NCBI RefSeq assembly: GCF_025457605.1
Contig: NZ_JAMZFY010000001.1
Location: forward strand, 1,116,001-1,180,000
Length of the DNA: 64,000 nucleotides
Direction of reading: 5' to 3'
Source: Haloarcula laminariae
Lineage (GTDB): Archaea > Halobacteriota > Halobacteria > Halobacteriales > Haloarculaceae
Positions 30,344 through 62,668 of this stretch are shown here, piece after piece; position 1 is the first letter of the stretch; the number at the start of each line of letters is the position of its first letter. The translations under genes were made by a program, and so were the position numbers. The notes beneath the pieces are model-generated. The model was not told where the DNA came from. It worked only from the letters and a program-made list of their open reading frames with translations, and did no database searches.

Positions 30344-30748
30344 ACCCGCAAATCTGAGCAGAACGTGTTAGTTGCACCGGTCATTCGGCATATTTGGGTA
30401 ATCATCGGCGTGTCTGAGCAGTTCTGCGCAACAAATAAGTATGGTGGGCGTAAGTGAGCAATATAGTGCGGCAGTCGGGCTCAACGGGTGTAGGTAGGGT
30501 GAGAAGGAGTCGGGAGCCGACGACCCTGCGCCGGCCGGAGTGCCGCTCTATCGAGCGAACACATGACCACGACCGATGCACGCCGCCAAAAGACAGGTGG
30601 CACGACTGACGGCCAGCGCCCCGGTTTCACTTTCACCGGCGATATCCCGCAATTTGGCGGGACGGGGCGGCGAACCGATTACTTTCACTTTCACTCCCCG
30701 CGTGTGGGTTTCCCCCTTTACCTCCCATGCCATCAGTTCCGACCGCAC
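30344..30748. promoter_or_regulatory. 405-bp regulatory region with direct repeats
   Basis: No gene is supported here. A 9-base direct repeat TCTGAGCAG occurs at 30353-30361 and 30413-30421, 60 bases apart and flanking the likely promoters of the HTH gene; it is a candidate operator pair. Further right, TTTCACTTTCAC occurs twice (about 30629 and 30682), and a CCCGC-AATTT-GGCGGG hairpin lies at about 30647-30662. Repeated motifs of this kind upstream of a zinc-finger/integrase pair suggest element-specific control, but this is inference. Confidence 0.5.
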
Positions 30749-43856: not shown

Positions 43857-46800
43857 TCAGATTTCAGATGTGTCGTCGTCTAATTGTCCAGCGAGTGCAA
43901 TATCTGCTTCCGTAACGGTTTCTGGATCAACTAGCTCAATCTCCTCTGTGAGTTTATGATGCATCCTTCGAATCGTACCATTAGTCCCATATCTACGGCG
44001 TCTCCGATGTATCGTGCGCAACTGACCCTCTGCCCAGTCGCTCATCTCGTGATCGTCCAGGAGTTCTAGGATTTCTTCCGCTTCTCCGCTTACGTCCTCG
44101 TCGCTGTTCGCAATCTGGCGACATAACTGTTTGATGTCAGTAACCACATCACTATCGCCGCTCTGCCGGCTCAAAATATCGTTTTGCCATGTACTTGGCG
44201 TCCCTAACTCACCCACGAAGGATTTCAGCTCCTCAAAATCATCTTCGGGAATCGCGTGACGAGTGGTATCAGGGGAAGATACCGTCTCAAACACTCGAAC
44301 TTCATCTGTCTCCAGACGTGGGAACTGAGTGAAGACCGTTTGTCCTCCGATTGTGGTGCTTTGTACTCGATCCGAATCGAAGATGGTGGTTCGCCATTCA
44401 GTGCGTCCACTACTGTGTTCTAAGTGTGCGAGTGAGACGTATCCTTCTTGGCCAGGGGAGACGAAATACTGCGGTTCAGACCTGTCTGCGACGGCATCGT
44501 AGGTTTCCTGAAGCTCCTCGATATCGACATCATTTTCCTCACAGAACGCTCGAACGATGTTTCTGAGATCGTCGTACTTCGACCCAATACCCTCTAACCG
44601 TTCATCACCAAACTCTGCACCGCCTTCTTCTAATCGCTCGTAGGTCATGAGCGTCTTGTGTACTTGCTCTTCAGCAGTATCCAAGATGGGGGCGGCATGA
44701 CCGAAGGTGTTTGCGATGTCTTGGATTTTCTCTTGAATTCGTTCAACAAGCCCGAGCTGCTTCCGCAGATCGCCTGTCGGAGCAAAGTTGTAAATACACA
44801 GTTCATCATGCCGCGTTGTGATGCGGTCAATACGCCCAATTCTCTGCTCCATCTTCATCGGGTTCCAGTGGAGGTCGTAGTTCACGATGACTCGTGCATC
44901 CTGGAGATTCTGTCCGACCCCTAGCACGTCGGTTGCAAACAGGATATCGATTTCTTCACCGGGGGTAACATCGGCTTCTTGAGCTTCTGGAGCGAACCGC
45001 TCAACAATTCTCTCATCGAACCCGCTACCTCCGTGGACAAATCCGACGGTAGGATTGCTCGGATTTTGACCGAGCGTAGCAACGTTGGTGTGAGCTGGGT
45101 TCTCGCCGGTTAGTTGCTCGAAGAGATGAGTGATAGTGGGTACGTACTGACTGAATATGAGGACCTTCTCGTCCGATAGCTCTCGATCAATTAATCCACG
45201 AAGGCGTTCCGCCTTAGCGTCTTTAGTGCGCCCGTCTTCTTTGGTCTGAAGTGCATTCTGTGCTTGCCGTTTTATACGTTCAAGTTCTCGAAGGTCTTCG
45301 TCAATGTCTGCTACGATTTCATCCCTTTTCGATGGGCTAACTCTATTGAGGGCTTCTGCGACATCCTCAAAGTCAACATCCTTGGCGAAATCATCCTCGA
45401 ATGTATCTCGTATCTGTTCGACGGCGTCACTCCGGTTTTGCGCATCATCCAGGTCACCAGTAGCGATGTGACGTGTGATGCGCTCTCGTTCCATAAGCCG
45501 TTCAACAGAACTCTCGAACGCAGCTAAGCTACTCTCAAGACGTTTGAGGAGATTAATGAGCATCAGAATGCTCGCGTTCTGGTACTCAATGATTAGCTCC
45601 TCCTCCTCATCTCCATCAGCGTCATACCGATCAGCGCTAACGTAGGGGATGTTCAGCCCAGAGTTCTCGGAGTCATCTGAACCGATGACGGTATCGACGA
45701 TATCGCTATAGAGTTCGTCAAGGCGAGGGTCATCAGGAGTGATAAGACGCGGCTTTCGATCGGGAACGCTGATGGCCCGGTCTCCGATGGTGATGTCCCC
45801 GTAATTGTCGAGGATGTATTTGCGGTCCCTCGAAATAATGACCTCCCTCATAATTGACTCAATGAGTTCTTCAAGGTCTGAAAGCCGACTCTGAGTGCTC
45901 GCGGATTTGTCTTCCTCGCTGGAGAGGCGGTCGTACTGTTTAAAAATCTCGCTTGGTGACAGGCCCTTCAGTTCAATGTCGAAGTCGTCGTCGTCAGCAA
46001 ACACCTTGATCAGATTGTCCACGTCTCGAACGGAGTTGTGGATCGGCGTTGCAGTGAGCATCACGAACTTCTTGCCCTTCCGACCGATTGACTGGAGTTT
46101 ATCATAGCGCTGTGTTCCAGTATTTCGGAGGTTATGAGATTCGTCGACGAGAATCAAATCAACTCCACGTAGTCGTTGGATTTCTTTCTCAGACAGCCGA
46201 GAGAGTTTGTTGAAGCTCATGAACGTCTTCTCAGCAGTCGTCGGAAATTCACCAGTATCCGCATCAAGGAGGTCCTGCATCCACATCCGCTTCAGTCGCT
46301 TCGGAGCGATGACGAGAACGTCGTCTCGGGAACTCGTATACTCCTGTACAAGCGGAGCACCGATGTATGACTTACCGAGACCGACGCTGTCTGCTAAAAC
46401 GACACCATTGTATTTTTCGAGTGGGCGACGGGCTGCTCTGAACGCGTCCTGCTGGAATGCTGTGAGTTGCTCTTCGTAATCGCCCGTGATGTCCTGAAGT
46501 AGGGTTCCCTCTCGAACATCTCGGGAAAATTGCTCCACAATAAACCGCTTCGTCGCTTCGTACGGTGAAATCGTTTCCACCTCGGCGACCGATGTTTCGC
46601 CTTCTCCTGTAGAGATGTCCGGTAGGTCATCTTCGAACTGCGACTTCTCTATCGCGGCAGTCATCAGGTCCTTGTCGAATTCGCTTGCCTCCTCCCAAAT
46701 CTCCTCGAACCACTCGCCGAGATACCGGATGGTGTTGTTGTCCTTCTTTTCCACATTCAATTCGACGTTTCCGCGGAGGCCGCTAGCAGAGAGGTTTGAA

Positions 46801-47240
46801 GAGCCGATAATTGCCCGACCAAGGTCCGGGGAACCGGCAGGATGCTCGAAGAGATAGAGTTTTGGGTGGAATCGACTGTCGTCGTACACACGAACATCTA
46901 CTTTGTCCTCCTGAATGAGCTCATACAGTCGATTGATACCCTCTTGTGCTTCAGATAGGTCGTACTCTTCAAGGTCGTTAGCGAATCCGCGTTCGAGTTC
47001 GTCGATAGTGCGCTGGTCGGTATCGGTCCCGATGAGGATCTCGACACGTTCAGCCCTTCGGAGATTTTCTTTCAGGAGGTCGAAACCACCAAGATAGAAA
47101 TAACCGACGGCGATGCGGACAGTCTCGGCTTCAGGCGCAATCGTGTTCGCACGCTCGGCAACATTATATTCCCGATTGTCAAGGACATCGGAGTACTCGC
47201 TCCAGTCGGGGTCATTTTGACTTCGGTTGTTATTACTCAT
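43857..47240 (-). CDS. SNF2/DEAH-type helicase with N-terminal phospholipase D-like domain
   Basis: 1127-residue protein. Residues about 20-200 form a PLD-like domain with FHPKLYLFEHPAGS and IGSSNLSASGL (HxK and the trailing Ser/Asn). A superfamily 2 ATPase follows: Walker A ADSVGLGKSYIG (about 286-297), DESH box in LILVDESHNLRN (about 370) and motif III TATPIHN. The C-terminal helicase half has DVLGVGQNLQDA and the motif VI region MEQRIGRIDRI (about 810-820). It probably translocates on DNA and may cut it, working with the coupled methylase (ATGA overlap) as a restriction-type system. The layout partly recalls DrmD- and type ISP-like architectures without matching either. Confidence 0.82.
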   Translation of the reverse strand: MSNNNRSQNDPDWSEYSDVLDNREYNVAERANTIAPEAETVRIAVGYFYLGGFDLLKENLRRAERVEILIGTDTDQRTIDELERGFANDLEEYDLSEAQEGINRLYELIQEDKVDVRVYDDSRFHPKLYLFEHPAGSPDLGRAIIGSSNLSASGLRGNVELNVEKKDNNTIRYLGEWFEEIWEEASEFDKDLMTAAIEKSQFEDDLPDISTGEGETSVAEVETISPYEATKRFIVEQFSRDVREGTLLQDITGDYEEQLTAFQQDAFRAARRPLEKYNGVVLADSVGLGKSYIGAPLVQEYTSSRDDVLVIAPKRLKRMWMQDLLDADTGEFPTTAEKTFMSFNKLSRLSEKEIQRLRGVDLILVDESHNLRNTGTQRYDKLQSIGRKGKKFVMLTATPIHNSVRDVDNLIKVFADDDDFDIELKGLSPSEIFKQYDRLSSEEDKSASTQSRLSDLEELIESIMREVIISRDRKYILDNYGDITIGDRAISVPDRKPRLITPDDPRLDELYSDIVDTVIGSDDSENSGLNIPYVSADRYDADGDEEEELIIEYQNASILMLINLLKRLESSLAAFESSVERLMERERITRHIATGDLDDAQNRSDAVEQIRDTFEDDFAKDVDFEDVAEALNRVSPSKRDEIVADIDEDLRELERIKRQAQNALQTKEDGRTKDAKAERLRGLIDRELSDEKVLIFSQYVPTITHLFEQLTGENPAHTNVATLGQNPSNPTVGFVHGGSGFDERIVERFAPEAQEADVTPGEEIDILFATDVLGVGQNLQDARVIVNYDLHWNPMKMEQRIGRIDRITTRHDELCIYNFAPTGDLRKQLGLVERIQEKIQDIANTFGHAAPILDTAEEQVHKTLMTYERLEEGGAEFGDERLEGIGSKYDDLRNIVRAFCEENDVDIEELQETYDAVADRSEPQYFVSPGQEGYVSLAHLEHSSGRTEWRTTIFDSDRVQSTTIGGQTVFTQFPRLETDEVRVFETVSSPDTTRHAIPEDDFEELKSFVGELGTPSTWQNDILSRQSGDSDVVTDIKQLCRQIANSDEDVSGEAEEILELLDDHEMSDWAEGQLRTIHRRRRRYGTNGTIRRMHHKLTEEIELVDPETVTEADIALAGQLDDDTSEI

Positions 47241-50200
47241 TGAACAGCCACGTAACTCGCTTTGATACCGTATATCTCCTGTACTTGTTCGTCTATTTTT
47301 TTCTGTATTTTGTCAAAGGGGGTTTCTTTCTCCCCTCTTTTGACCTGGATTGCTTCATCGACCAGTGAGACAAGTGCGTCTTGCTCGCTCTTTTCTGGTA
47401 TCGGGATCGGGAGATTTCTCATATCACTTGCCTGTACATTAACGGTGTGATTGATGAAGTTGTCTAAGATGTACTTACAAAAGTTTGAATTTAAGATTCC
47501 TAAGAGATATTTTGGGCTTATTTTCTCGTCTATGGGGAGCATCAAGACTCCGCTCGTGTCGACAACAGAGTCATTCACATATCGTGCCTTTACTTTGTAT
47601 TCCCCAGTACCACCACGTGAGGCGAATATTCCCTCACGGAAGTAATATTCAGGATCTCGGAGGCGTCCATTCCGGTTATTTTTAATTCGTTTAAGTGCTT
47701 CCTTTGTCCAACGAAGGTAGATAATGATGTCTTTATGATATATGTCTTTTTTGTCTGACCCCTTCTCGTATGGGACCCAGACCTTATTTCCGTACTCGTT
47801 AGAGTTGACTCCATTAAGTCGTTCTTCTTCGTTTAGTTTGTCAGGATCCAAAATATGATCTTGTTTGATAACTCGGCTCATCCATTTGTACTGTTCCTCA
47901 TTCTTTTCCACATATTCAAATGAATCGCTGTTCCTCTCTTTCACTCGCTCTGCGGCATCACTCCCCTCAATATAGGCCAGGAACTCATCGTTATTTCCAG
48001 TTACAAGCCCGACTCCACCATAGGTGAGAAGGCCCATAATAGAGGTATCTCCTGGGTCAAGAGCAGTAATATGCTTTTTTCGAATGGTATCGAGACTGTC
48101 CTCTAAGGCATCTGTATCATATATTTCTTCTCTCCATTCTTCGACGAGAGCCGTGACCTCAGACATGAACCGTGAATGAATCTCCAGATTAGTTTCGTTC
48201 GGGAAGAAAAGGGATTTCTTGAGAGTGTTCTTATATATTTCACTCGTCACGGCATACCCCTGGATAGATGAGGACAAGTTGATTGGAATAACCTGCTTTT
48301 TCGAGACTTCCTCAGAATCAGACCGCAACAATGTACTTTTCACCAGACTCCGATACTGTTCAATCCCTGTCTCAGATGCGTCTATGTATTCAAACGTGGG
48401 GTCGTTTTCCGATGGCACTTTAGTACAGGTAAATATCGCAGGGTTCACTGCGGCGTCAAATGTATCGGGATTCGCCAGCACCAGGTTTTCTAAGTCATTA
48501 GACAATAGGAGATCTCGCGTAGGCTGCTTAGATCCGATTGTCCGGAACGTATCGCTAGTTATATACGATAGAACACCGCCTTCTCGCGTTAATTCCCACC
48601 CCCGAATAATGAATTTCTGATATAGGTCATAGCGCATCCCATCAATTCTATTGTAGAAGTCGTACTTTGAATCATAGAATTTCGCTAATTCAGTCAGGTA
48701 TCCCTGTTGGGACTGTCCCTCATAGGGTGGGTTTCCAATCACGATATCAAATCCTCCGTTCAGGATGACCTCTGGGATGTTTGAAGTCCACGCAAATGTG
48801 GTATCTACCTCTGCGGCGACATCGGTCATCCAACCTCCCTTATCTTTTACCGCTAGTTGGGTTTCAAGATTATTGATCAGATCGTTGAGTTGGTCGGTGA
48901 GACGGTCCTTTTTATCCCCATGGGCGGTTTGATACACTGCTCGCGTGGTGTGGATTTCCTCCAACGTGGCTTCCAGGCCCCCAGCTAGCGTCTCTTGGTA
49001 AGTGCCAACGTCCACCCGCGTCGGATCATGTTCGCCGACCAAACTATTCCCGACGAAGAATTTGAATCCGAGATTTGGTAGCGCAAACTCTTCGTTTGAA
49101 TCGAGGAACTCCTCGTGGTCCACATCAAGATCTTGCATCAAGTGGAGCCACACACGGAACTTACACAGTTCGATGCCGCCAGCGTCGATATCAACACCGT
49201 AGAGCGTGTCCGCAATGAACTCTTCTTTCAACTGGAACCGGCTTCGGGCGTCATCAGTATTCTCGTCGAGCGCTTCTGAGACGGCGACGAGTTCCTCCAA
49301 CATGCCAATTATGAATGCGCCACTGCCCACTGCTGGGTCCAGTACTGTCGCAGATCGAAGAGCATTATTGACGGCCGTGATTTGGTCCTGTGAAAGAGAC
49401 TTAGGTGCAGTGTGATCACTGACCAGTGAAACAGCTTCTTCATGGGAGATGTCGGTTTGGCCCAGCAGATGTTGCCTGAGCGCGTTCTTCGTCATATAGG
49501 CGGTGATAGGCTTCGGAGTGTAGAACGCGCCCACCTCTGAACGTTCGTCCTCCTGCATGAACATCTCGAAGATACGCCCAATGAACTCTGGGTCGACGAC
49601 GAGTTCCTGTTCACTGGGGTTCGACTCACGTAATGAGATCTTGTACTTCCGGAGGAACCCTTCCGGTTCGCCATCGTCGCCATCCTCCGGACTGAGGAGC
49701 TTGTCGAAGAATGTCTCGTCAATTTCAACGTCCTTCTCTATGTCCTTGCACTCGAACAGACCGCCGTTGAGGAAGGGAATCTGACCAAGGCGGTCCGATT
49801 CCGTTGTCCCCTCCTCTGAGAGCGCTTCGAAGAACAGTGGCTCGAATAAGTCGTCGTAAACGTGGAGATTGTCCTCTTCGGCCACTTCCTCGTACCTGTT
49901 TTCGACGTAGTCGATATCCCCATCGAGCCAACCCTTTTCCTCAATAAACAGTAGGAACAGCACTCGGTTGACGACAGTTCTCGTGTAGGCGTTGAGGTTC
50001 TCTTCTGGATCTTCCAGACCGTGAATTGCGTCTTGAAGATCTTCACGGAATATTTCTCCGAAATCTTGGTAGAAGCTCCGCGTGACCTCCCGGATAGAGA
50101 AGACATCCTCGACATCGCCTTCGAGGCTCGTTCGGCCTTGTCCGGATTCCACCGTGAGGTCGTTAAGATAGTCGAGATAAGCTGGTTCGACGCCGAATCG

Positions 50201-50629
50201 CTTGACTGTGAAGTAGTTTAGATCGAATGTGACTTCCACATCTTCAGAGGAGAACTGCTCTTCGATGTAGAGAAAAGTGAGATCATCGTTCAGAGGGCTT
50301 GTCAGTGGGCCCTCGTCGGATTTCCTATATGCAATGACAGTGAAGAGTTCGTTAACCGGGCTTCCGTGTCGTTTCAGTTGTCGCTTCAGGTCGCTAAATG
50401 CGGGACTATCTCCAGATCCTTCGAGTTCGATGTATCGTATGACTCCGTCACCACTCTCATCAACTAAGTGCGCCTCGTACCAATCGTTCCTACCTTGGTT
50501 TCGCTTTATCCCGCTCGGCACTTCAACGAACGAACTGTAATTTAACCCCTCTGAATCGAGTAGATAATCAATCACGTCGCCGCCATTTTCGATTGATTCA
50601 AGATCTTCGATGGTAGTCCGGACAGACAT
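47237..50629 (-). CDS. Eco57I-type adenine methylase (type IIG-like)
   Basis: About 1130-residue protein. The N6-adenine methyltransferase core has motif I VLDPAVGSGAFIIGM (about residues 432-446 from this start) and catalytic motif IV IGNPPYEGQSQQGY (NPPY, about 640-653). The N-terminal 250 residues could be a nuclease or recognition region, and the C-terminal 300 residues are a target-recognition-type domain (ILNSNFCKYI, NLPIPIPEKSE as in type I and IIG specificity parts). It probably marks host DNA while the downstream helicase attacks unmarked DNA. Start chosen at the ATG at 50629; the ATG at 50647 is also possible. An A/T box lies near 50661-50669. Confidence 0.85.
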   Translation of the reverse strand: MSVRTTIEDLESIENGGDVIDYLLDSEGLNYSSFVEVPSGIKRNQGRNDWYEAHLVDESGDGVIRYIELEGSGDSPAFSDLKRQLKRHGSPVNELFTVIAYRKSDEGPLTSPLNDDLTFLYIEEQFSSEDVEVTFDLNYFTVKRFGVEPAYLDYLNDLTVESGQGRTSLEGDVEDVFSIREVTRSFYQDFGEIFREDLQDAIHGLEDPEENLNAYTRTVVNRVLFLLFIEEKGWLDGDIDYVENRYEEVAEEDNLHVYDDLFEPLFFEALSEEGTTESDRLGQIPFLNGGLFECKDIEKDVEIDETFFDKLLSPEDGDDGEPEGFLRKYKISLRESNPSEQELVVDPEFIGRIFEMFMQEDERSEVGAFYTPKPITAYMTKNALRQHLLGQTDISHEEAVSLVSDHTAPKSLSQDQITAVNNALRSATVLDPAVGSGAFIIGMLEELVAVSEALDENTDDARSRFQLKEEFIADTLYGVDIDAGGIELCKFRVWLHLMQDLDVDHEEFLDSNEEFALPNLGFKFFVGNSLVGEHDPTRVDVGTYQETLAGGLEATLEEIHTTRAVYQTAHGDKKDRLTDQLNDLINNLETQLAVKDKGGWMTDVAAEVDTTFAWTSNIPEVILNGGFDIVIGNPPYEGQSQQGYLTELAKFYDSKYDFYNRIDGMRYDLYQKFIIRGWELTREGGVLSYITSDTFRTIGSKQPTRDLLLSNDLENLVLANPDTFDAAVNPAIFTCTKVPSENDPTFEYIDASETGIEQYRSLVKSTLLRSDSEEVSKKQVIPINLSSSIQGYAVTSEIYKNTLKKSLFFPNETNLEIHSRFMSEVTALVEEWREEIYDTDALEDSLDTIRKKHITALDPGDTSIMGLLTYGGVGLVTGNNDEFLAYIEGSDAAERVKERNSDSFEYVEKNEEQYKWMSRVIKQDHILDPDKLNEEERLNGVNSNEYGNKVWVPYEKGSDKKDIYHKDIIIYLRWTKEALKRIKNNRNGRLRDPEYYFREGIFASRGGTGEYKVKARYVNDSVVDTSGVLMLPIDEKISPKYLLGILNSNFCKYILDNFINHTVNVQASDMRNLPIPIPEKSEQDALVSLVDEAIQVKRGEKETPFDKIQKKIDEQVQEIYGIKASYVAVQ

Positions 50630-51187
50630 ATTTCGCTTGTCGGGCATTCTCTCTATCATCATATATACTCTTGGCAAACACTCGTGGGCTGTCGGTGAAG
50701 CATCTGAACGTAGCTCCCTTCGTTACCGTATATGAACCTGCGCTTCCTCTGGCCAACTGTGAGTCTACCGAACGACTGATCGGTTGAATAAACATGAATG
50801 AGTTCTGACTCCCCCGGGGTCAGACGTAGATTATTCACAATCCATAATCTATGCATATTCTGGGAGAGTAATCATCAGGACTATGTATACATTCTGTGCT
50901 ATCGGCGGGATGAGCCGCACCAATGGGCTCGGACGAATCAACCAGTTATTACCAATCTTATCTTGAGTTAGCCGAGTAGGACAGCCTTCAGAACAATTGT
51001 ATACATCAGTGTATCAAATCAGAATTGGGAATTGAGATTTCTTCCTGAAGCAATTGGCTGCGCGGCATATTATGAGAGACAGTGCTGCTCATGGAAGATT
51101 ATATATTGCGCTGACTGTCGTTCTAACCGATTTCTATCACAATTGGCGTGCTAGACTTAGAGAGTGAGTTCAGTGCGACGGCTTCGT
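50630..51187. other. about 560-bp intergenic region, promoter of the methylase operon
   Basis: No gene supported. A TATATATGATG-type box on the minus strand (about 50658-50669) probably serves the methylase operon. A hairpin of nine base pairs with a three-base loop is at 50804-50824 (TCTGACTCCC... GGGGTCAGA). The rest is A/T-rich and without long frames. Confidence 0.45.
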
Positions 51188-51418
51188 TTATTCCGATAGT
51201 TGCCAAAGCTTTGCATTGCCGACTTTCCGCGAAGTTACTTTTTGCTTTTTTTCAAGCTCGCTTAGTTTAGCATGAGCCGTTCGATATGCACAACCGACCT
51301 CACCGGCAATTTCGCTCGTCCCCGCCGAACCATCTAATGCTTCCAGTGCAGAAATGAAGTCCTCGGAAGGATAATTCTGAGTATATTTCCCAGTCTCCTC
51401 ATCTCGGTCCCGTGGCAT
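51188..51418 (-). CDS. small HTH protein divergent from the HRAMP-like operon
   Basis: 76-residue winged-helix protein. The core is EDFISALEALDGSAGTSEIA, then CAYRTAHAKLSELEKKQKV as recognition helix and KLWQL at the end. This domain type is frequent in haloarchaeal accessory regions. It starts 196 bases before the first gene of the Cas7/Cas5-like operon, on the opposite strand, so it may control that operon and itself. The palindrome at 51504-51517 between them is a candidate binding site. Confidence 0.75.
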   Translation of the reverse strand: MPRDRDEETGKYTQNYPSEDFISALEALDGSAGTSEIAGEVGCAYRTAHAKLSELEKKQKVTSRKVGNAKLWQLSE

Positions 51419-51503
51419 CAGTGCCCAATCGCACCTACCTGCAGAAGACTCTTAGTTTTATTCTTCCAATGCAGCCTTCTGCAATGGGAACATTTTTACC
51501 CAA

Positions 51504-51517
51504 TGCATTATAATGCA
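51504..51517. promoter_or_regulatory. 14-bp perfect palindrome and CCAATGCA-type repeats
   Basis: TGCATTATAATGCA is a perfect 14-base palindrome in the divergent region between the HTH gene and the HRAMP-like operon. Related short motifs cluster around it: CCAATGCA at about 51466, 51500 and 51608 and TGCAATGG at about 51479 and 51514. Its centre, TTATAA, could serve as a TATA box, so a bound regulator would block transcription. Interpretation is inference. Confidence 0.5.
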
Positions 51518-51560
51518 ATGGCACGGGAAGTTCAGCCATCTTGGCATCAGATAATAGGAT

Positions 51561-51584
51561 GCCCGCGTGGTGGTGCACGCGGGC
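51561..51584 (+). other. strong GC hairpin in operon leader
   Basis: GCCCGCGTG and CACGCGGGC form a perfect 9-base-pair stem around the six-base loop GTGGTG, between the candidate promoter and the first ATG of the HRAMP-like operon (51615). It could be a leader structure, an attenuator or part of a small RNA. It occurs once, so it is not a CRISPR array. Confidence 0.55.
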
Positions 51585-51614
51585 TGGGCTTCCCAATAGA
51601 CTGGAGCAAGCCCA

Positions 51615-52001
51615 ATGCAATACACAGAGCCTTATGCTAAAGAAGGCACGGATAGTGGACCTATTGAAGAGATAATCCAGGTACAGTCGAATGCGCACGA
51701 GGCGGGGCACGTAACCTGTCAAGCGTGCGCACAACCATTGCCGGACGGCACCGAGGTGACCGCGTATGCCGTCCGACCTGGCCGACACGCGCCATGGATG
51801 GTCGCCCAAACCCGTTGCGTGGACCATCCCCTCACCCTATCGAACCAGACCACCTTAGGCGTCGACGAACGCCTGCTCACGGGCCGCCTCGCCCGCATCG
51901 TCGACCAGGCCCACCAACGGTCGTGGCCGATCACCATTGCCGAAACCGTTGTCGCCACCTCCCCAGCAGAGACAACCGATACCCAGGAGGCCCAGGCGTG
52001 A
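51615..52001 (+). CDS. HRAMP-operon first protein, small zinc-binding type
   Basis: 128-residue protein. The centre has CQACAQPLPDG and, about 35 residues later, TRCVDHP, which provide three cysteines and a histidine for a zinc site (about residues 36-72). The ends are charged and probably disordered. The start codon is ATG at 51615, just after the leader hairpin. The stop overlaps the Cas7-like gene start by 4 bases (GTGA), so it belongs to the same translational unit. No homologous family is known to me; it may stabilise or regulate the complex. Confidence 0.65.
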   Translation: MQYTEPYAKEGTDSGPIEEIIQVQSNAHEAGHVTCQACAQPLPDGTEVTAYAVRPGRHAPWMVAQTRCVDHPLTLSNQTTLGVDERLLTGRLARIVDQAHQRSWPITIAETVVATSPAETTDTQEAQA

Positions 52002-52918
52002 CGGACCTCGTCGACACGCTCCCGGTAGACCTCGAAGACACCCACTTGCCCGACCTGTACGTTGGCCTCGAGATTCCCCTACTGGCGCCGGGCGATGGCA
52101 TCGTCACCGACCGCCATCATGCCTCGGCCGATCGCTACGAAGCCGATGACCCGATGAACCAGATCGAGGGCCAGATCTCGCCGTTCACGCTCTCTGGCTG
52201 GGCTCGCCATGGCTGTGAGAACGTCCTCCAGCAAGCTGGCCTGACGGCCTGTCACCCGGGCGAAGCCAACGGCGACTATATGCGCGCCGAAACCTACCAG
52301 CGAGACCTCGAGTCAGGCTACCACGAGAAAGGCACCTGCACGGATGCCCACGATGCGGGCTGTGTCATCTACGACCTCTTCGGCGGCTTCGGGTCCCAGC
52401 CGGGCAAACTCCTGCGTCGCCCGGTGTCCTTCTCGCCGATTCGCCGCCAGGTCGACGTACTCGAAGGCGAAGCCGAAGCCCACTACCGACAGGTGTCCTC
52501 ACACGTCCGCTCGCGCAATGACGAGGACGGCGGCCAGCCACTCCGGCATGCCCAGCGTGACGTACTCGGCAACATCGAGGGGACGTGGAAACTCACCCTG
52601 CGCGAGCCCAAACCGGAATTCGTCGGGCTCCTCTGTGAGGCCATCGAGTTCCTCGATGACAACAGCGACGAGTTTGCGTTCCAGCTGGGCGGCGCTCGAA
52701 ACTTCGGCGCCGGCATCGCCGACACGTGGCTGATCAACCCGCTGTACTCCGACCGGGAAATCCGGCGTATCTTCAATCGCGCCCAATCGACGACAGCGGC
52801 GATGGAGGAAAAAGACGACCTCTGGGCCACGGAGTGTCGGCCGGCCGTCCAGGCGGCGTTGCAGGAACGCATGGCCAGCCGTGACGACACCGCGGAGCTG
52901 GGAGGTGTCCAGACGTGA
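51998..52918 (+). CDS. Cas7-like RAMP protein (HRAMP system)
   Basis: 306-residue protein (GTG start) with features of the Cas7/Csm3/Csf2 group of RNA-backbone-binding RAMPs: DLYVGLEIPLLAPGDG at the N-terminus, an ISPFTLSGWARHGCENVL helix (the usual PGSSLKGxLRH-like position), a CVIYDLFGGFGSQPGKL segment and the glycine-rich LGGARNFGAGIAD loop (about residues 229-241). The last is the hallmark RAMP loop. In class 1 CRISPR complexes, Cas7 coats the guide RNA. Here no CRISPR array is near, as expected for the haloarchaeal HRAMP systems. It overlaps its neighbours on both sides by 4 bases. Confidence 0.8.
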   Translation: MTDLVDTLPVDLEDTHLPDLYVGLEIPLLAPGDGIVTDRHHASADRYEADDPMNQIEGQISPFTLSGWARHGCENVLQQAGLTACHPGEANGDYMRAETYQRDLESGYHEKGTCTDAHDAGCVIYDLFGGFGSQPGKLLRRPVSFSPIRRQVDVLEGEAEAHYRQVSSHVRSRNDEDGGQPLRHAQRDVLGNIEGTWKLTLREPKPEFVGLLCEAIEFLDDNSDEFAFQLGGARNFGAGIADTWLINPLYSDREIRRIFNRAQSTTAAMEEKDDLWATECRPAVQAALQERMASRDDTAELGGVQT

Positions 52919-53693
52919 GCAACGCCCAGACGCCAGCAACCGACACTGACGCCGATCCACTGGTGGCGGCCTACCGCCATGACACACACACAAACTCTGC
53001 CTGCGCTCACACGCGGCGGCCCGCGAGGAGTTTGCGGGCGTCCCTGTCAACGAACAGGTGCCACTGGGTGCCGACCAGGACGCCGCATTGCTCAGTCGCC
53101 CCCGCGGCGAGCCCACCCAGACCGTCGAGAATCATCAGTCGCCGTACCGACTGTCGCTACTGACCGGCGAGGTGACAGTCCCGGCGGGCCAGACCGACGC
53201 CGACAGGACCGACGCCATCCGCGAACTCGTCCAAATTGACGACCCCGACGAGTTGCACCAGGCGTGGCTTGCAGCCGTGGTCCCCACCCAGTTCGCCGAA
53301 TCGATGTACTACCCCTACACATCGCTGAAGTACCACACCCTGCTGACGGCGACCCTGTACGCAACGTACAGCGAGGGCGCGGATTTTGGGGACCTGTTCC
53401 TCGTCGTCGAACCCGATGACGAGCTCGTCCCACAGCGGACCATCATCGACACCGACGCGGTCACACTCTCGCTGACGACCACGCCCGGCGACCGGCCGGC
53501 CGCGTGGCTGGGCCCGGCGCCGGCTCGCTCGTGGGCGGATGTCTGGCAGCGCCTGCCCGCCCATTTACTCCCGGACACCAGACGCGCTCGCATGCTGGAT
53601 GCCCAACTCCGGCGCATCCGCAGCTGGTCGACGGCCCTGCAGTATATCGAGGCGTTTCAGCAGTACGTCGGCGCGCTGGAGGGGAGCCGATGA
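52915..53693 (+). pseudogene. HRAMP conserved third gene, split by a frameshift at an (AC)5 tract
   Basis: The GTG at 52915 overlaps the Cas7-like stop and reads SNAQTPATDTDADPLVAAYRHD, then loses frame at the tract 52982-52991. The open frame resumes two bases offset with LCLRSHAAAREEFAGVPV and continues intact to TGA at 53691-53693 (about 259 residues if joined). One AC unit fewer would restore a single frame. The joined product has no recognised domain; it is helical, with PYTSLKYHTLLTATLYATY near residue 133, and holds the place of the uncharacterised conserved protein of HRAMP loci. It may be a phase-variable, recently broken or miscalled gene, so the pseudogene label is provisional. Confidence 0.75.
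52982..52991 (+). repeat. (AC)5 simple repeat at the frameshift
   Basis: Five AC units between CATG and AAACTC inside the third HRAMP gene. With four units the two halves of the gene are in one frame. Dinucleotide tracts slip during replication, so this is a possible on/off switch, though the tract is short. Confidence 0.7.
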
Positions 53694-53782
53694 GCACGCA
53701 TAATGTGGGGTGGGCGCCAGTGACAGCTACTCGCAGTGCAAGCCACCCACAACCCCAGAACCACATGGAGGCATGCCGATGA
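53690..53782 (+). CDS. 30-aa bridging ORF between HRAMP genes
   Basis: MSTHNVGWAPVTATRSASHP begins in an ATGA overlap with the upstream stop and ends at a TGA (53780-53782) that overlaps the next gene's ATG at 53779. Both junctions are 4-base overlaps, so ribosomes could be handed from the third gene to the Cas5-like gene through it. Protein function is doubtful; a coupling role is plausible. Confidence 0.4.
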   Translation: MSTHNVGWAPVTATRSASHPQPQNHMEACR

Positions 53783-54702
53783 CGCCCATCCAGGAAATCC
53801 TCTGGGAGGTCGAGTGGGCCTACGCGGGCAACCCCTACTACGTCCCGGGCCATGCCATCTACACGGCCCTGGCCCGCCGGCTGCCCGACGACGTAGCCCA
53901 AGACCTGTATGTCAGTCCTGGGCTCTTTGTCCCCGGGGAGTACGGCAGCTTTCCACCCACACACTCCCGGTCCGGTGGCGTCCCGTACCTGGGCACTGGC
54001 TTGCGAACAGTCGCGGCCTACGATGACCTGTTCCTCTTTCGGGACAGCAGCCAGCGTTGGCTTGCGACCACGCGGCCCCGGGATGCCCACAACACCCACA
54101 CTATCGATCAGTACGGTGACCGACTCAGCTACGCGGGGACGCGGGTCTTCGGCAAGCAGCCCGACAAACGCGCCTCGAAACGGACGATGTCGTGGTACAT
54201 CTACGCCTACTGTGACTTCGACGGCCAGGGCCAGCTCCCACTGGCGGAAGACATGCTGGATGGCCTCCAGTTGGGTGGCGGGCGCAACTACGGCTTTGGC
54301 GAGGTGACCTGTGTCGAGACCCGCACCGTAGATCTCGACGACCTCTCGTATGCACGTCTGGAAGCAGCTGAGTCGTATCAGGTGGAACTGCACACCCCCT
54401 ACGTCCTCGAGAGTGAGTATCCCGGCGCGCATGACAATCGCATCCCGTGGTGGTGGGGCGATACCGACCTCCGCGAACGCGAGGTGCTGTTGCACAAGGG
54501 CAGTGACACCTACCGGCTGCGGACGATCGACCACGGCCAGATTGTCGAATATACCGGCTCGGACCCGATCGGGACGGCCAAACGCGGCGTGCTCGGCGTC
54601 GGCACGCACAAGCAGTATGGCTTTGGCCAATTCAGGGTGCGCCCGGCCAGTGATGATCGGGTGCCAGAACGGCAGGCCGGACACACGGGAGGGTCGGCCT
54701 AA
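53779..54702 (+). CDS. Cas5-like RAMP protein (HRAMP system)
   Basis: 307-residue protein with two glycine-rich RAMP loops: LGGGRNYGFGEV (about residues 169-180) and, near the C-terminus, LGVGTHKQYGFGQFRV (about 272-287). These fit a two-domain RRM/RAMP fold as in Cas5 or Cas6, with a WEVEWAYAGNPYYVPGHAI N-terminus. In class 1 complexes, Cas5 caps the 5' handle of the guide RNA; a Cas6-type processing role is an alternative, as histidines are present near HAIYTALARR. The ATG at 53773, two codons upstream, is an equal alternative start. The stop overlaps the exonuclease ATG by one base (TAATG). Confidence 0.75.
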   Translation: MTPIQEILWEVEWAYAGNPYYVPGHAIYTALARRLPDDVAQDLYVSPGLFVPGEYGSFPPTHSRSGGVPYLGTGLRTVAAYDDLFLFRDSSQRWLATTRPRDAHNTHTIDQYGDRLSYAGTRVFGKQPDKRASKRTMSWYIYAYCDFDGQGQLPLAEDMLDGLQLGGGRNYGFGEVTCVETRTVDLDDLSYARLEAAESYQVELHTPYVLESEYPGAHDNRIPWWWGDTDLREREVLLHKGSDTYRLRTIDHGQIVEYTGSDPIGTAKRGVLGVGTHKQYGFGQFRVRPASDDRVPERQAGHTGGSA

Positions 54703-55385
54703 TGCCCGACCTCGAACTGGTGGCGTTCGATATCGAGACGACGGGCTTCGACGTGGAGGATGAGGTAACGGTCATCGGCCTCGAGTTCGACTTGGGCAGT
54801 CGGGTGGCCTACCAGACCGGTGGCCGGCCCGTCGAGGAGATTCAGGCGGAGATCCGGGAGAAGTGTGACCATCAGGTCACGGTTGAGGGCCACGACAACG
54901 AGGAAGTCATGTTGCGCGGGATGAGTGCGTACATCCGCCATCGACTCATGAAGGAGGACGTGTTGCTCGTCGCCTACAACGGCGAGACCTGGCAGGGCGG
55001 GTTCGACGTGCCCTTCCTGCGGACCAGGTTTGCGATTCACGATATCCCATGGCCGTTTATCGACATTCCGTATGCGGACCTGTTGCCGATCGTCAAGAAG
55101 CTGTTCAACACCACGAGCGGCGGTGAGTCGAACAACGACCTCCCAACCGCACACGAGCTGTTGTGTACGAACGTCGTTCAGGCGGCGCCGGCCGATCCCT
55201 TCGAGGATAGTAGTGAGGCGGTGACGGCCTTCGAAGAGGGCCGGTACGAAGAGTTGGTCCAGCACAATGTGGCTGACATCGTTCGGACGAGACAGTTGGG
55301 CCGGGTCGCACAGTGGTACTGTAGCAAGTCGGATTTCAGCCTGAAATCGATGACGCCGGTCGACGCAGTGGATTCGCGGGAGTAG
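54702..55385 (+). CDS. DEDD-type 3'-5' exonuclease of the HRAMP operon
   Basis: 227-residue RNase H-fold exonuclease. Exo I is AFDIETTGFD (residues 8-17) with the catalytic Asp and Glu. Exo II is in the YNGETWQGGFDVPFLRTRF segment (about 94-112) with an FD pair, and Exo III-type HNVADIVRTRQL (about 187-198) gives the last Asp. This pattern is like the YprB/PolB-type exonucleases. It follows the Cas5-like gene with a one-base overlap, so it is probably the nucleolytic arm of the complex, acting on DNA or RNA. The HRAMP literature predicts alternative nucleases in place of Cas3 or Cas10. Confidence 0.82.
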   Translation: MPDLELVAFDIETTGFDVEDEVTVIGLEFDLGSRVAYQTGGRPVEEIQAEIREKCDHQVTVEGHDNEEVMLRGMSAYIRHRLMKEDVLLVAYNGETWQGGFDVPFLRTRFAIHDIPWPFIDIPYADLLPIVKKLFNTTSGGESNNDLPTAHELLCTNVVQAAPADPFEDSSEAVTAFEEGRYEELVQHNVADIVRTRQLGRVAQWYCSKSDFSLKSMTPVDAVDSRE

Positions 55386-55567
55386 GCCGCGGCTCCTGGC
55401 CGGTTCGAATGCAGCTATTGAAGCGATATCCCAGACCGATACACTGCAATCAGGCGAGAGGCAGACAGACACCAGCAGCTACCTACACAAATGCAAACCA
55501 GAGCAACACAGCGACACGACGTACTGAGCGATCGATCAGCCACGGCACGAGGGGCGGTGACCGGGCG

Positions 55568-56530
55568 ATGAGTGACCACCCAGACCACGAGGCCGTCCCG
55601 CCAGCCAAACGCGAGAAAAGACTCAAGCGCGACAATCATCGGTGTCAGTACTGCAACGCCAAGGGGACCGCGATCGGTGGCTTCGCCACGTTGGAGATCC
55701 ACCACAAGACCCGCGAGCCCGAAGACATGGATGTCCATGACCTCGAGAATCTCCTCACTGCGTGTCGCTCATGCCACAGCTGGCACCACCTCCAGACGAC
55801 CGACGAGGAGGTGCCCGTCGACCTAAGTGAGGCCGATCTGAGTGAGCTTCTGCCCCACGACTTGGAGATCATCAAGGTGCTAGCTGAGATGGGGCCCGCC
55901 TCAACTGGCGAGATCGTCGAGGCGATCACGGCCGATATCTCCGTGATGGCTGTGCGTGAGCGACTGTACGTCCTGATGGGGCTCGACAATGTCGTCGAGG
56001 ACCGGGAGCAACAGCTCATTGACCAGGAGACCGACACCGGTCAGTGGGGCTTGCCAGACCAGATCGTTCACTCCGAGCGAGGTCGGATTCCTGAGGACAC
56101 ACAGACGTTGCTACAGCGGACTGAGGACGAACAGGTCCGCCAGGCACTGGCTCGGGGGTGTGATCGGGAGATGATTGCGGAGGTCTTCGGGATTGTCTCC
56201 CGGACGACGTGGCACAAGGAAAAGCGGGCGAATGCGTATGACTTCCCGCTGGAGGCGGTGAGTCGCGCCGGCGAGGCTGGAGACGAGGCTGGGAGTGGGT
56301 CGCCGCCGCCGCCGGCCGATGCGCCCCAAGAATCTGATCAGCAACAGTTGGAAACGGTAGCAGCGATGGATGATAGCGATCACGTAACCGATGCCACGTC
56401 ATCGACAACAGACGGTGGAACACCTGAGGCTACTGCCCCGTCCGGTGGCGAGACAGCGCCCGTTCAAGAGCAGCTCGTGACCGCAATCGAAGCGCTCCAA
56501 GCGGTCAAGGAATCGCTGGCGAGAGCCTAA
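55568..56530 (+). CDS. HNH endonuclease associated with the HRAMP operon
   Basis: 320-residue protein. The N-terminal HNH domain (residues 15-75) has the zinc pairs CQYCNAKG and CRSCH, with LEIHHKTREP as the catalytic histidines and LENLLTAC for the N position. A helical middle follows (possible winged helix SVMAVRERLYVLMGLDNV, about 120-137, and an HTH-like REMIAEVFGIVSRTTWHKE, about 197-215). The tail is low-complexity acidic, Ser/Thr/Pro-rich. The ATG at 55568 follows a 182-base gap from the exonuclease; the longer upstream reading lacks support. It is the second nuclease of the locus. A degraded copy of its tail lies at 58796-58957. Confidence 0.8.
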   Translation: MSDHPDHEAVPPAKREKRLKRDNHRCQYCNAKGTAIGGFATLEIHHKTREPEDMDVHDLENLLTACRSCHSWHHLQTTDEEVPVDLSEADLSELLPHDLEIIKVLAEMGPASTGEIVEAITADISVMAVRERLYVLMGLDNVVEDREQQLIDQETDTGQWGLPDQIVHSERGRIPEDTQTLLQRTEDEQVRQALARGCDREMIAEVFGIVSRTTWHKEKRANAYDFPLEAVSRAGEAGDEAGSGSPPPPADAPQESDQQQLETVAAMDDSDHVTDATSSTTDGGTPEATAPSGGETAPVQEQLVTAIEALQAVKESLARA

Positions 56531-60070: not shown

Positions 60071-60715
60071 ATGCAACACTGCTGCAAGGTCGGCCGGTTG
60101 ACGGCAACGTATGACCTCCAGCATGCCGCCCGAGACGGGGACGTAGACGGGTATCTACGGGCTCGCTGGCTGGGTCAGGATGAGTACACGGAGACTGGAC
60201 TCCGACCGCTCAAAGAGTGGTTCAACAAACAGCTGTTGAAGTCCGTCTACACCGACCATAACCGGAGTACACTGGCGACACGTGTTGATGCCGACTATGA
60301 AGCACTGTCAGGTGAGGAGCCGGATATTTCTCTTCTTGGTGAGCTTGAGGCCGACGGAATTGACGGTAACCAGCTCCGCTCTGACTTTCTCTCAACATCT
60401 ACGCTGTACCGACATCTTACAGATTGCCTCAGTGAAAGTAAGTCGAACAACGCTGCCGAAGGAGACTCAGACTGGGAGGCCGACAAGGTTGACTACGCAA
60501 AAGAGGTGGTCGAGCGAAGCGTTAGGGAAAGCCTCCAGTCACTAGAGAATAAATCGATGATACCTGAAGCGACACGGTCAACGATCAAAACGGAGGTCAT
60601 CCTTGGCTGTCCTGAGTGTGCAACGCAGGTACGCTTCGAGCGTGCTCTCGAACGGGGGTATATCTGCCAGGACCACATGGCATCCGAGATTACAGGACCA
60701 TCCGACGGGGGTTAG
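60071..60715 (+). CDS. rdfA: RdfA-like protein (rod-determining factor family)
   Basis: 214-residue protein. The N-terminus CCKVGRLTATYDL followed by LRARWLGQDEYTETGLRPLKEWFN matches the RdfA family, named from Haloferax volcanii, where it affects rod shape. The C-terminus has CPECATQVRFERALERGYICQDH, a zinc-ribbon-type C-x2-C...C-x2-H. The ATG at 60071 was taken because the family starts there. The next gene encodes an SMC-related protein, the usual partner in haloarchaea. This is one of possibly several paralogues, so a role in shape is inferred, not shown. Confidence 0.8.
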   Translation: MQHCCKVGRLTATYDLQHAARDGDVDGYLRARWLGQDEYTETGLRPLKEWFNKQLLKSVYTDHNRSTLATRVDADYEALSGEEPDISLLGELEADGIDGNQLRSDFLSTSTLYRHLTDCLSESKSNNAAEGDSDWEADKVDYAKEVVERSVRESLQSLENKSMIPEATRSTIKTEVILGCPECATQVRFERALERGYICQDHMASEITGPSDGG

Positions 60716-60820
60716 TGGCAGTTCGGCCCCGAAGTAATTACAGTAGGCCTCGAAGTCTGTTCTTTCAGGCCCCAATTTACGACAGTGGTTTCATAATCCT
60801 GCTGGACCTGTATATGAACA

Positions 60821-62668
60821 ATGTGGGATGTAAGAATCAGAAATATTGGTGGTATCCGGGCCGCTGAGGCCAGCCTCGATGAGGGACTCAACGTGGTTCA
60901 AGCATCGAATTTCATGGGGAAATCGAGCTTCGTGCGTGCGATTCAGACCGTGATGGGGACCACGGGCATGTACGGAGAATCACACCCACTCAGGGAAGGC
61001 ACAAATGAGGGGTCAGTTCACCTCGATACGCCGGACGGCTCCTACGAGATCACACTTGAAAGCTCGGAACCGGGTACAGTCAGTCGACACGGCAAGACGT
61101 TTCTTGGAGATGAGACCGACCAGACCTGTGCACGCTTGTTCGCGTTTCTGGGGGAAAACAATCCGATTCGGGCCCGAGTTCGGGAACAGTCCGACCTCAC
61201 TGAGCTGTTACAGGCCCCGCTTGGTCTTGAGGACATCGAGAATAAAGTAGCGGCCCGCAAACGGGAACGCGAGTCGAAGCGAAAAGAGCTCGAGCAGGCT
61301 GAACGTGCGGCGGAGAATCTCCCGTCGGTGCAGGAGGCGATAGGAACGTTAGAGGACGATATTGAGTCGCTGCGAGAGCGTCGGGACGAACTGTCGGAGA
61401 GTGTCGGGGATGCCACCGACGCAGACTCCCGAAGTGATGAATTGGCTGAAAAGCGAAGCAACCTCCAGTCGTTGGACCAGCGGATTAACGGACTGCAGGA
61501 CAAAATCGAGCGCACCGAAACAAAACTGGATGAGAAACGCGGGACACTTGAGAGCCTGACTGTGCCCGACGAGCCCGAGCCTACTGCCGACATCGAGGCT
61601 AAGGAATCACGCATCGCGGAGTGTGAACAGCAGATTGACCTCCTAGAGGGGCTTCATCGCGCAAACAAACGCGTCATCGAGGAAGATGCGATCGACCTTG
61701 TCAGTTCGGTTGAGCGTAGCGTCGTGGGTGATGAGTTCGACTGCTGGGTGTGTGGAGAACCAACGACAAGCGATACTATCGAGTCCAGACTGGCAGCGAT
61801 ACAGGACAAAATAATCGACCTTCGTGAGGAGAAAGAGAACCTGACCGAAGAAATCGAGGAAATCGAGAAACGGCAGCGTCGCTACCGAGAGAAACAGCGG
61901 GAGAAAGAGTCACTCGAAGAAGAGATTGGGCGCCTCAAAGCAACGCTTGACGATCGGAGCGGCGACCTTGCACAGGCTGAGGAGCGGAGAGCCGGGTTAG
62001 CATCAGAGATCGAAGAATTGGAAGTATCTGTCGCTGCTGCCGAGGAAGAACTGAGCGAAGAGCTCACCGACATCAAAGCAACGCTTCAAACGAAAGAACG
62101 AGAGCTAGACGCTCAGCGGTCCCGGCTGCAGGAACTACAGGAGTTACATGCAGATGCAGCGACACTACGAGAGGATATTGAGGCACTCGATGACGAGATT
62201 GCACGGCTCCGAAACCGGAAGACAAAGAAACAGTGGGAACTGAAAGAAGAGTTCGATACGGCTATGGCGGCAGCTATCGACCGCTTTGCCCCTGGATTCG
62301 ATGGTGCACGTCTCGATGTAAAGACAACCCCAGAAAACGAGATAGACTCGTTCGAACTGGTTATCGCTCGCGACGGTCGCGAGACGACTATCCAGAACCT
62401 GAGTGAGGGGGAGCGAGAACTAGTGGGCATCGTCGTCGCGGTGGCTGGATACCGGACGTTTGACGTGGCCGATCGCGTTCCGCTTATACTGCTCGATGGC
62501 ATCAGTCAGCTGTCTGCGGCTAATCTCCGCTCGTTAATAGAGTATCTCAGCGACGCAAGCGAGCTCCTTGTGACGACAGCATATCCCGAGGCCGGGACGT
62601 TCGATGGCCACCACATCTCACCGAACCAGTGGGACACCGTTTCCGACGAGGAGACACCGACCGCCTGA
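60821..62668 (+). CDS. archaea-specific SMC-related protein (Sph-like)
   Basis: 615-residue coiled-coil ATPase. The N-terminal ATP-binding half has ASNFMGKSSF (residues 29-38), a Walker A with alanine in place of the first glycine, typical of the archaea-specific SMC-related group. Long coiled coils (about 140-270 and 325-480) flank a zinc-hook-like CWVCGEP (about 307-313). The C-terminal half has the signature LSEGERELVGI (about 527-537) and Walker B VPLILLDGISQL (about 554-565). It forms an arm-shaped dimer by analogy with Rad50. It pairs with RdfA; the Haloferax relative Sph3 is implicated in cell shape. The 105-base gap suggests an operon. Confidence 0.85.
   Translation: MWDVRIRNIGGIRAAEASLDEGLNVVQASNFMGKSSFVRAIQTVMGTTGMYGESHPLREGTNEGSVHLDTPDGSYEITLESSEPGTVSRHGKTFLGDETDQTCARLFAFLGENNPIRARVREQSDLTELLQAPLGLEDIENKVAARKRERESKRKELEQAERAAENLPSVQEAIGTLEDDIESLRERRDELSESVGDATDADSRSDELAEKRSNLQSLDQRINGLQDKIERTETKLDEKRGTLESLTVPDEPEPTADIEAKESRIAECEQQIDLLEGLHRANKRVIEEDAIDLVSSVERSVVGDEFDCWVCGEPTTSDTIESRLAAIQDKIIDLREEKENLTEEIEEIEKRQRRYREKQREKESLEEEIGRLKATLDDRSGDLAQAEERRAGLASEIEELEVSVAAAEEELSEELTDIKATLQTKERELDAQRSRLQELQELHADAATLREDIEALDDEIARLRNRKTKKQWELKEEFDTAMAAAIDRFAPGFDGARLDVKTTPENEIDSFELVIARDGRETTIQNLSEGERELVGIVVAVAGYRTFDVADRVPLILLDGISQLSAANLRSLIEYLSDASELLVTTAYPEAGTFDGHHISPNQWDTVSDEETPTA

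What the first reader, a model, noticed from the sequence alone, without database searches (positions are those of the whole stretch)
51188..56530. HRAMP-type, array-less CRISPR-derived operon with two different nucleases
Seen: two proteins with RAMP glycine-rich loops (LGGARNFGAGIAD; LGGGRNYGFGEV and LGVGTHKQYGFGQ), a third conserved gene between them, a DEDD exonuclease and an HNH nuclease. The first five genes overlap by 1 to 4 bases in sequence; the HNH gene follows after a 182-base gap. No CRISPR array, Cas1, Cas3 or Cas10 was found. Known: Halobacteria carry a predicted derived class 1 system (HRAMP) with diverged Cas5 and Cas7, an uncharacterised protein and variable nucleases; as far as I know it has no experimental demonstration. 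Inference: this copy has an exonuclease-plus-endonuclease pair and a divergent HTH regulator. The small zinc protein at 51615 may be an extra subunit.
Basis: partly seen in the sequence, partly recalled or inferred. Interest (0 to 1): 0.9.

Follow-up and report, generated by a model that had tools for sequence, protein, structure and literature searches.

The report
HRAMP operon with hidden RNA elements
This is one copy of a known but, as far as I know, never tested CRISPR-derived gene set of salt-loving archaea (HRAMP); a core gene is frameshifted here, and comparing relatives reveals two conserved non-coding elements, one resembling the tag of a CRISPR guide RNA, that may show how an array-less system gets or controls its RNA.

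Summary
The operon is real and is HRAMP. The gene at 51998 is Csm3/Cas7-like, the gene at 53779 is Cmr3/Csm4/Cas5-like, and the gene between them matches no family. The DEDD and HNH nucleases keep their catalytic residues. Cas1 is absent from the whole genome. The nuclease pair is not special to this copy: it marks one of two well-separated HRAMP clades.

(1) The middle gene is not one ORF: an (AC)5 tract at 52982-52991 shifts the frame inside a motif (YRHDxHK) that is in frame in 39 of 44 other loci; an intact paralogous operon lies 0.86 Mb away. (2) The operon starts with a structured RNA leader (51518-51617), strongly supported by covariation and absent from Rfam. It recurs in other haloarchaeal operons, usually opposite a small HTH gene, so it is probably a cis-regulator. 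(3) Between DEDD and HNH lies a sharply bounded 17-nt element, ATTGAAGCGATANNCCA (55417-55433), found in 29 HNH-type HRAMP loci of at least four families and almost nowhere else. Its first 8 nt equal the crRNA 5' tag of haloarchaeal CRISPR. It could mark the missing guide RNA or be a control site for the nuclease; sequence alone cannot decide.

The parts
51188..51418 (-). Divergent small winged-HTH regulator
   Evidence: Weak HTH matches (CasR/Csa3-type HTH 1e-3, FaeA 0.003); a divergent small HTH gene stands at the same place in most HRAMP loci
51466..51521 (.). Two inverted repeats CCAATGCA-N6-TGCAATGG (51466-51487 and 51500-51521), the second around TTATAA: likely operators of the HTH over the promoter
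   Evidence: Read directly from the sequence; function inferred
51518..51617 (+). Structured 5' leader RNA: P1 51525-51537/51582-51594, P2 51543-51548/51558-51563, P3 51564-51569/51576-51581, possible anti-start pairing 51586-51591/51608-51613
   Evidence: Covariance model hit 59.4 bits; window fold -44 kcal/mol, z -3.05; covariation in 26 leaders; anti-start pairing only weakly supported
51615..52001 (+). Small zinc-ribbon-like protein (CxxC...C)
   Evidence: Conserved first gene of the HNH/DEDD clade, invariant cysteines
51998..52918 (+). R1, Cas7-like (Csm3 group)
   Evidence: PADLOC Csm3 hit by 16 of 27 family members, best 7e-8; the window copy alone has no hit
52915..53693 (+). Middle protein of HRAMP, frameshifted here at the (AC)5 tract 52982-52991
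   Evidence: no family match
53779..54702 (+). R2, Cas5-like (Cmr3/Csm4 group)
   Evidence: PADLOC Cmr3 1.3e-7; weak Csm4 alignment over the glycine-rich loop (not significant)
54702..55385 (+). DEDD exonuclease, D10, E12, D102, D192 present
   Evidence: Pfam RNase_H_2 4.9e-7; acidic residues conserved in 20 relatives
55417..55433 (+). 17-nt HRAMP element ATTGAAGCGATATCCCA; first 8 nt equal the I-B crRNA 5' tag
55568..56530 (+). HNH nuclease with a C-terminal region that looks HTH-like
   Evidence: Pfam HNH 5.4e-7; H45/H46, N61, H70 and two CxxC pairs conserved in 18 relatives; HTH-like reading of the C-terminus is by eye

Best explanation
It is a member of HRAMP, of the clade that carries a zinc protein, a DEDD exonuclease and an HNH nuclease (about 0.95). 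R1 (Cas7-like) and R2 (Cas5-like) most likely form an RNA-binding complex, and HNH and DEDD are its effector nucleases in antiviral or anti-plasmid defence (about 0.65, inferred). Transcription is controlled by the divergent HTH, and the structured leader next to the first ATG probably controls expression (about 0.75, inferred). The copy in this window probably makes no full-length middle protein because of a dinucleotide slip (about 0.7); an intact paralogous operon exists in the same genome. The RNA partner is most likely transcribed from the operon itself; the only HRAMP-specific candidate found is the 17-nt AUUGAAGC-containing element before HNH (about 0.3 that it is the 5' part of a crRNA-like RNA). 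Shown: gene content, sequence affinities, covariation, element conservation, frameshift. Inferred: complex formation, RNA binding, defence role, regulation.
For: R2-Cmr3 and R1-Csm3 profile matches; conserved gene order in 45 loci; catalytic residues of both nucleases conserved; no Cas1 in the genome; leader covariation 95.7% paired, 12 pairs changed on both sides, 0 of 500 shuffles; 17-nt element 14 of 15 genome hits at HRAMP, validated in other families; middle gene frameshift; neighbouring PLD-helicase and type IIG-like methylase genes fit a defence island.
Against: No expression, binding or defence data exist. The window R1 alone has no significant family match, PDB profile searches found nothing significant, and structure models were too poor to use, so the RAMP folds rest on sequence profiles. 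The 17-nt element goes with HNH, not with the RAMP core (type B loci lack it), which weakens the guide reading.
Confidence: 0.6

Rival explanations
1. The 17-nt element is not part of a guide: it is a DNA or mRNA control or processing site for the HNH nuclease, bound for instance by the HNH protein's own C-terminal domain or by the RAMP complex, keeping a dangerous nuclease low until needed. The match to the crRNA tag is then coincidence, or shows that the Cas5-like protein recognises its own message.
For: It occurs only where HNH occurs, 28-160 nt before its start codon in most loci; loci with another gene in place of HNH lack it, and one HNH locus has a degraded version; bases after it drift slowly instead of turning over like spacers; no target found.
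Against: Not palindromic, and no conserved promoter sequence around it; the 8-base identity with the crRNA tag and the frequent TGCGG before it need coincidence.
Confidence: 0.45
2. HRAMP uses no guide at all: the Cas7/Cas5-like proteins bind generic or structured invader RNA and switch on the nucleases.
For: Array-less; the HNH-lacking clade has no shared short non-coding element other than the leader at the sensitivity used; [quoted passage not shown]
Against: The HNH clade keeps a tag-like element under strong constraint.
Confidence: 0.3
3. The copy in this window is a decaying remnant without function, covered by the intact paralogue.
For: Frameshift in a core gene; an intact paralogous operon in the same genome; the window's 85-nt gap lacks the conserved GAAAC...GGGTGTG motif before R2 seen in relatives; other loci also show broken copies, e.g. 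L040, L063.
Against: All other genes, the leader RNA and the 17-nt element are intact, so the break is recent, reversible by slippage in the AC tract, or a sequencing error.
Confidence: 0.45

Closest known systems
HRAMP (haloarchaeal RAMP; Makarova et al. 2019, doi 10.1093/femsle/fnz079, not held here; described in PMC8730458 and PMC12669027)
   Same: Diverged Cas5 and Cas7 homologues close to type III, an additional uncharacterised protein, nucleases (HNH named as common), no array, haloarchaeal
   Different: A DEDD partner nuclease, zinc protein, leader RNA and 17-nt element are not mentioned in the passages available; this copy has a frameshifted middle gene
ARAMP of Asgard archaea (PMC8730458)
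   Same: Array-less RAMP derivative with nucleases
   Different: Most ARAMPs carry a Cas1; here Cas1 is absent from the genome
Type III CRISPR-Cas (Csm/Cmr)
   Same: Csm3-like Cas7, Cmr3/Csm4-like Cas5
   Different: No array or Cas1; no Cas10 in the operon
CreA guide RNAs of haloarchaeal I-B systems (PMC8501985)
   Same: A solitary element keeping the 8-nt 5' tag while the rest of the repeat has decayed
   Different: No partner Cascade genes, no target or PAM found, no repeat hairpin, no RNA shown
Riboswitch-like translational leaders
   Same: Three-helix structure directly before the start codon with a possible competing pairing beside it
   Different: No Rfam match; no ligand known; competing pairing weakly supported

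Membership tests
HRAMP | Cas7 homologue | tested here: met
   Csm3 profiles match 16 of 27 family members, best 7e-8
HRAMP | Cas5 homologue | tested here: met
   Cmr3 profile 1.3e-7 in the window protein
HRAMP | Conserved uncharacterised third protein | tested here: met
   Conserved in all complete loci, no Pfam or PADLOC family; frameshifted in the window
HRAMP | Associated nucleases | tested here: met
   HNH and DEDD
HRAMP | No CRISPR array and no Cas1 in the locus | tested here: met
   No Cas1 in the genome; I-B-type repeats only on another contig
HRAMP | Found in Halobacteria | tested here: met
   Same genus as Haloarcula halobia (G011 contig C2 has the length and position of NZ_CP119788.1)
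HRAMP | Same gene family as the published HRAMP loci | not testable with these tools
   The 2019 paper is not held, so sequences could not be compared with its named loci
crRNA/CreA-like guide | 8-nt 5' tag of the I-B type | tested here: met
   ATTGAAGC at 55417 and in relatives
crRNA/CreA-like guide | Repeat hairpin before the tag | tested here: not met
   The region folds no better than shuffles
crRNA/CreA-like guide | Matching target | tested here: not met
   No excess matches within 20-kb loci; no convincing phage match
crRNA/CreA-like guide | Expressed, processed small RNA | not testable with these tools
   Needs RNA sequencing
Structured cis-regulatory RNA | Covarying helices | tested here: met
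Structured cis-regulatory RNA | Alternative pairing that hides the start | tested here: inconclusive
   92.3% paired against 20-68% when slid, but only marginally above shuffles

The most novel reading that the evidence does not exclude
HNH-type HRAMP is not guide-less: its operon makes a solitary crRNA-like RNA starting at the AUUGAAGC tag before the HNH gene, loaded by the Cas5-like subunit, with a fixed, vertically inherited guide. It would be an array-independent guided system that aims at a constant target or regulates its own nuclease.
Probability: 0.27. Interest if true: 0.9.

Novelty: new variant of a known kind. Interest (0 to 1): 0.6.

Why it matters
How an array-less CRISPR derivative finds its RNA and target is an open question, and the two held papers report no experiment on HRAMP. 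A 17-nt element that is nearly invariant across families and sits once per HNH-type operon gives a precise place to look. The leader is a candidate new structured RNA family that may control defence and mobile-element operons across haloarchaea, where many messages have no leader at all. The second, intact copy in the same genome offers a natural test system.

Tried and rejected
Leader as an HRAMP-specific guide RNA: rejected, because the covariance model finds it in 73 of 146 genomes, often before unrelated operons. Repeats between the middle gene and R2 as a CRISPR array: rejected for lack of regular spacing; only a minority of loci have extra copies. 17-nt element as coding: rejected, because no frame is open across loci and the invariance ignores codon positions. 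17-nt element as structured RNA: folds worse than shuffles. Self-targets: none in excess. Profile searches of R1, R2 and the middle protein against PDB: nothing significant; the middle protein's thymidine kinase hit at 0.03 and one member's tail-protein Pfam hit at 2.5e-4 were judged chance. Viral contigs: no relatives. The original HRAMP paper is not held.

Full report
Observation. The third gene begins at 52915 in one frame, but the conserved body lies in another frame and ends at 53693. The break falls in G(AC)5AAA at 52982-52991, inside a motif (YRHD-x-HK) that is readable in frame in 39 of 44 other loci. Genes 3 and 4 are separated by 85 nt. The paralogous operon at 2.03 Mb of the same genome has an intact middle gene of 279 aa.

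Identity. The protein at 53779 matches Cmr3 (1.3e-7). Relatives of the protein at 51998 match Csm3 (16 of 27 members, best 7e-8); the window copy alone does not. Both are therefore type III-like Cas5 and Cas7, in line with the published statement that HRAMP derives from type III (PMC12669027). The middle protein matches no family. The DEDD and HNH enzymes keep their catalytic positions. The whole genome lacks Cas1 but has degenerate I-B-type repeats on another contig.

Spread. 42 of 146 genomes of the family carry an R2 relative, counting fragments. Neighbourhoods of 45 loci show two architectures. A: HTH / zinc protein / R1 / middle / R2 / DEDD / HNH. B: HTH / short genes / R1 / middle / R2 without a conserved nuclease. 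An R1 tree separates A and B at 100/100 support; the single exception, L038, is a locus with both copies, whose type B R1 was the one entered. Type B copies sit on plasmids of Halobacterium and others.

Leader RNA. The gap between the HTH and the first gene contains a three-helix RNA in both architectures. On 26 sequences 95.7% of cells pair, against 18-45% when slid, and 12 of 20 pairs have changes on both sides (5.9 in shuffles, 0 of 500 as high). The structure was derived from this same alignment, so the slide control flatters it; the both-sided changes are the firmer evidence. The window copy scores 59.4 bits and folds at -44 kcal/mol, z -3.05. Rfam has no match. A second, shorter class occurs in type B loci. 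The 3' strand of P1 can pair with the bases just before the start codon, with marginal covariation support. The model also finds the RNA in 73 of 146 genomes, including a third copy in this genome before ParB-like genes, usually opposite a small HTH gene. It is best read as a widespread cis-regulatory leader, not an HRAMP guide.

The 17-nt element. The DEDD-HNH gap is otherwise unalignable but holds ATTGAAGCGATANNCCA, once, on the coding strand. Information content jumps from near zero to near maximum and back at its ends. In 146 genomes the strict pattern occurs 15 times, 14 of them in HRAMP; the reversed pattern occurs twice. In a wider set with a relaxed pattern, 17 of the 30 hits inspected lie at HRAMP loci, each between the R2/DEDD genes and the HNH position, in at least four families; the other 13 have no HRAMP genes nearby. 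In 29 loci 11 of the 17 positions are invariant. The element is absent where HNH is replaced by another gene, and one HNH locus, L037, has only a degraded version. It is neither coding nor structured.

Interpretation of the element. Its first eight bases equal the 5' tag of haloarchaeal I-B crRNAs, and many copies are preceded by TGCGG, as the repeats are by TGCGGG. Allowing for several known tags and offsets, I estimate an eight-base match by chance at the order of 1 in 300 to 1 in 1000; the TGCGG test (p 0.002) was post hoc. Haloarchaeal CreA RNAs are a precedent for solitary elements that keep the tag while the repeat decays (PMC8501985). Against a guide: linkage to HNH only, no hairpin, no detectable target, slow drift of the following bases among close relatives. 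I hold guide and control site both open, the latter somewhat likelier.

Mechanism committed to. R1 and R2 form an RNA-binding complex; HNH and DEDD cut nucleic acid on its signal; HTH and leader keep the operon low. Only the gene content, sequence affinities, RNA covariation, element conservation and frameshift are shown; everything about activity is inferred.

Noticed in passing
L055, L062, L068-L072, gap between the middle gene and R2: Two or more copies of a hairpin-forming unit near GACACTGGAAACGGGGTGTGTC with irregular spacing (33 to about 140 nt); a single related copy (GAAAC...GGGTGTG) abuts the R2 start codon in most type A loci but not in the window. Meaning unknown.
   Followed up: partly
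L106 (own genome C1:50000-61000), L110-L125: The same leader RNA stands before non-HRAMP operons, often opposite a small HTH gene: ParB-like genes, small 90-aa plus 67-aa modules and others. A candidate new haloarchaeal RNA family.
   Followed up: partly
window 30344-30565: A second divergent small-HTH arrangement before an integrase-containing pair of genes, with a weak full-length match to the leader model ending at the start codon (5.8 bits, E 0.3 in 1 kb; not significant).
   Followed up: partly
window 43857-50677: PLD-domain/SNF2-type helicase overlapping a type IIG/PglX-like methylase on the minus strand, beside the HRAMP operon; a further PLD-domain gene at 35022-37943. Looks like a defence island of lower G+C.
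   Followed up: partly
G000 contig C5, 20638-20864 and 28787-30962: Decayed CRISPR arrays with many different degenerate repeats in a genome without Cas1.
   Followed up: no
window 60071-62668: RdfA (rod-determining factor A) gene followed by an SMC/RecF-like ATPase gene.
   Followed up: no
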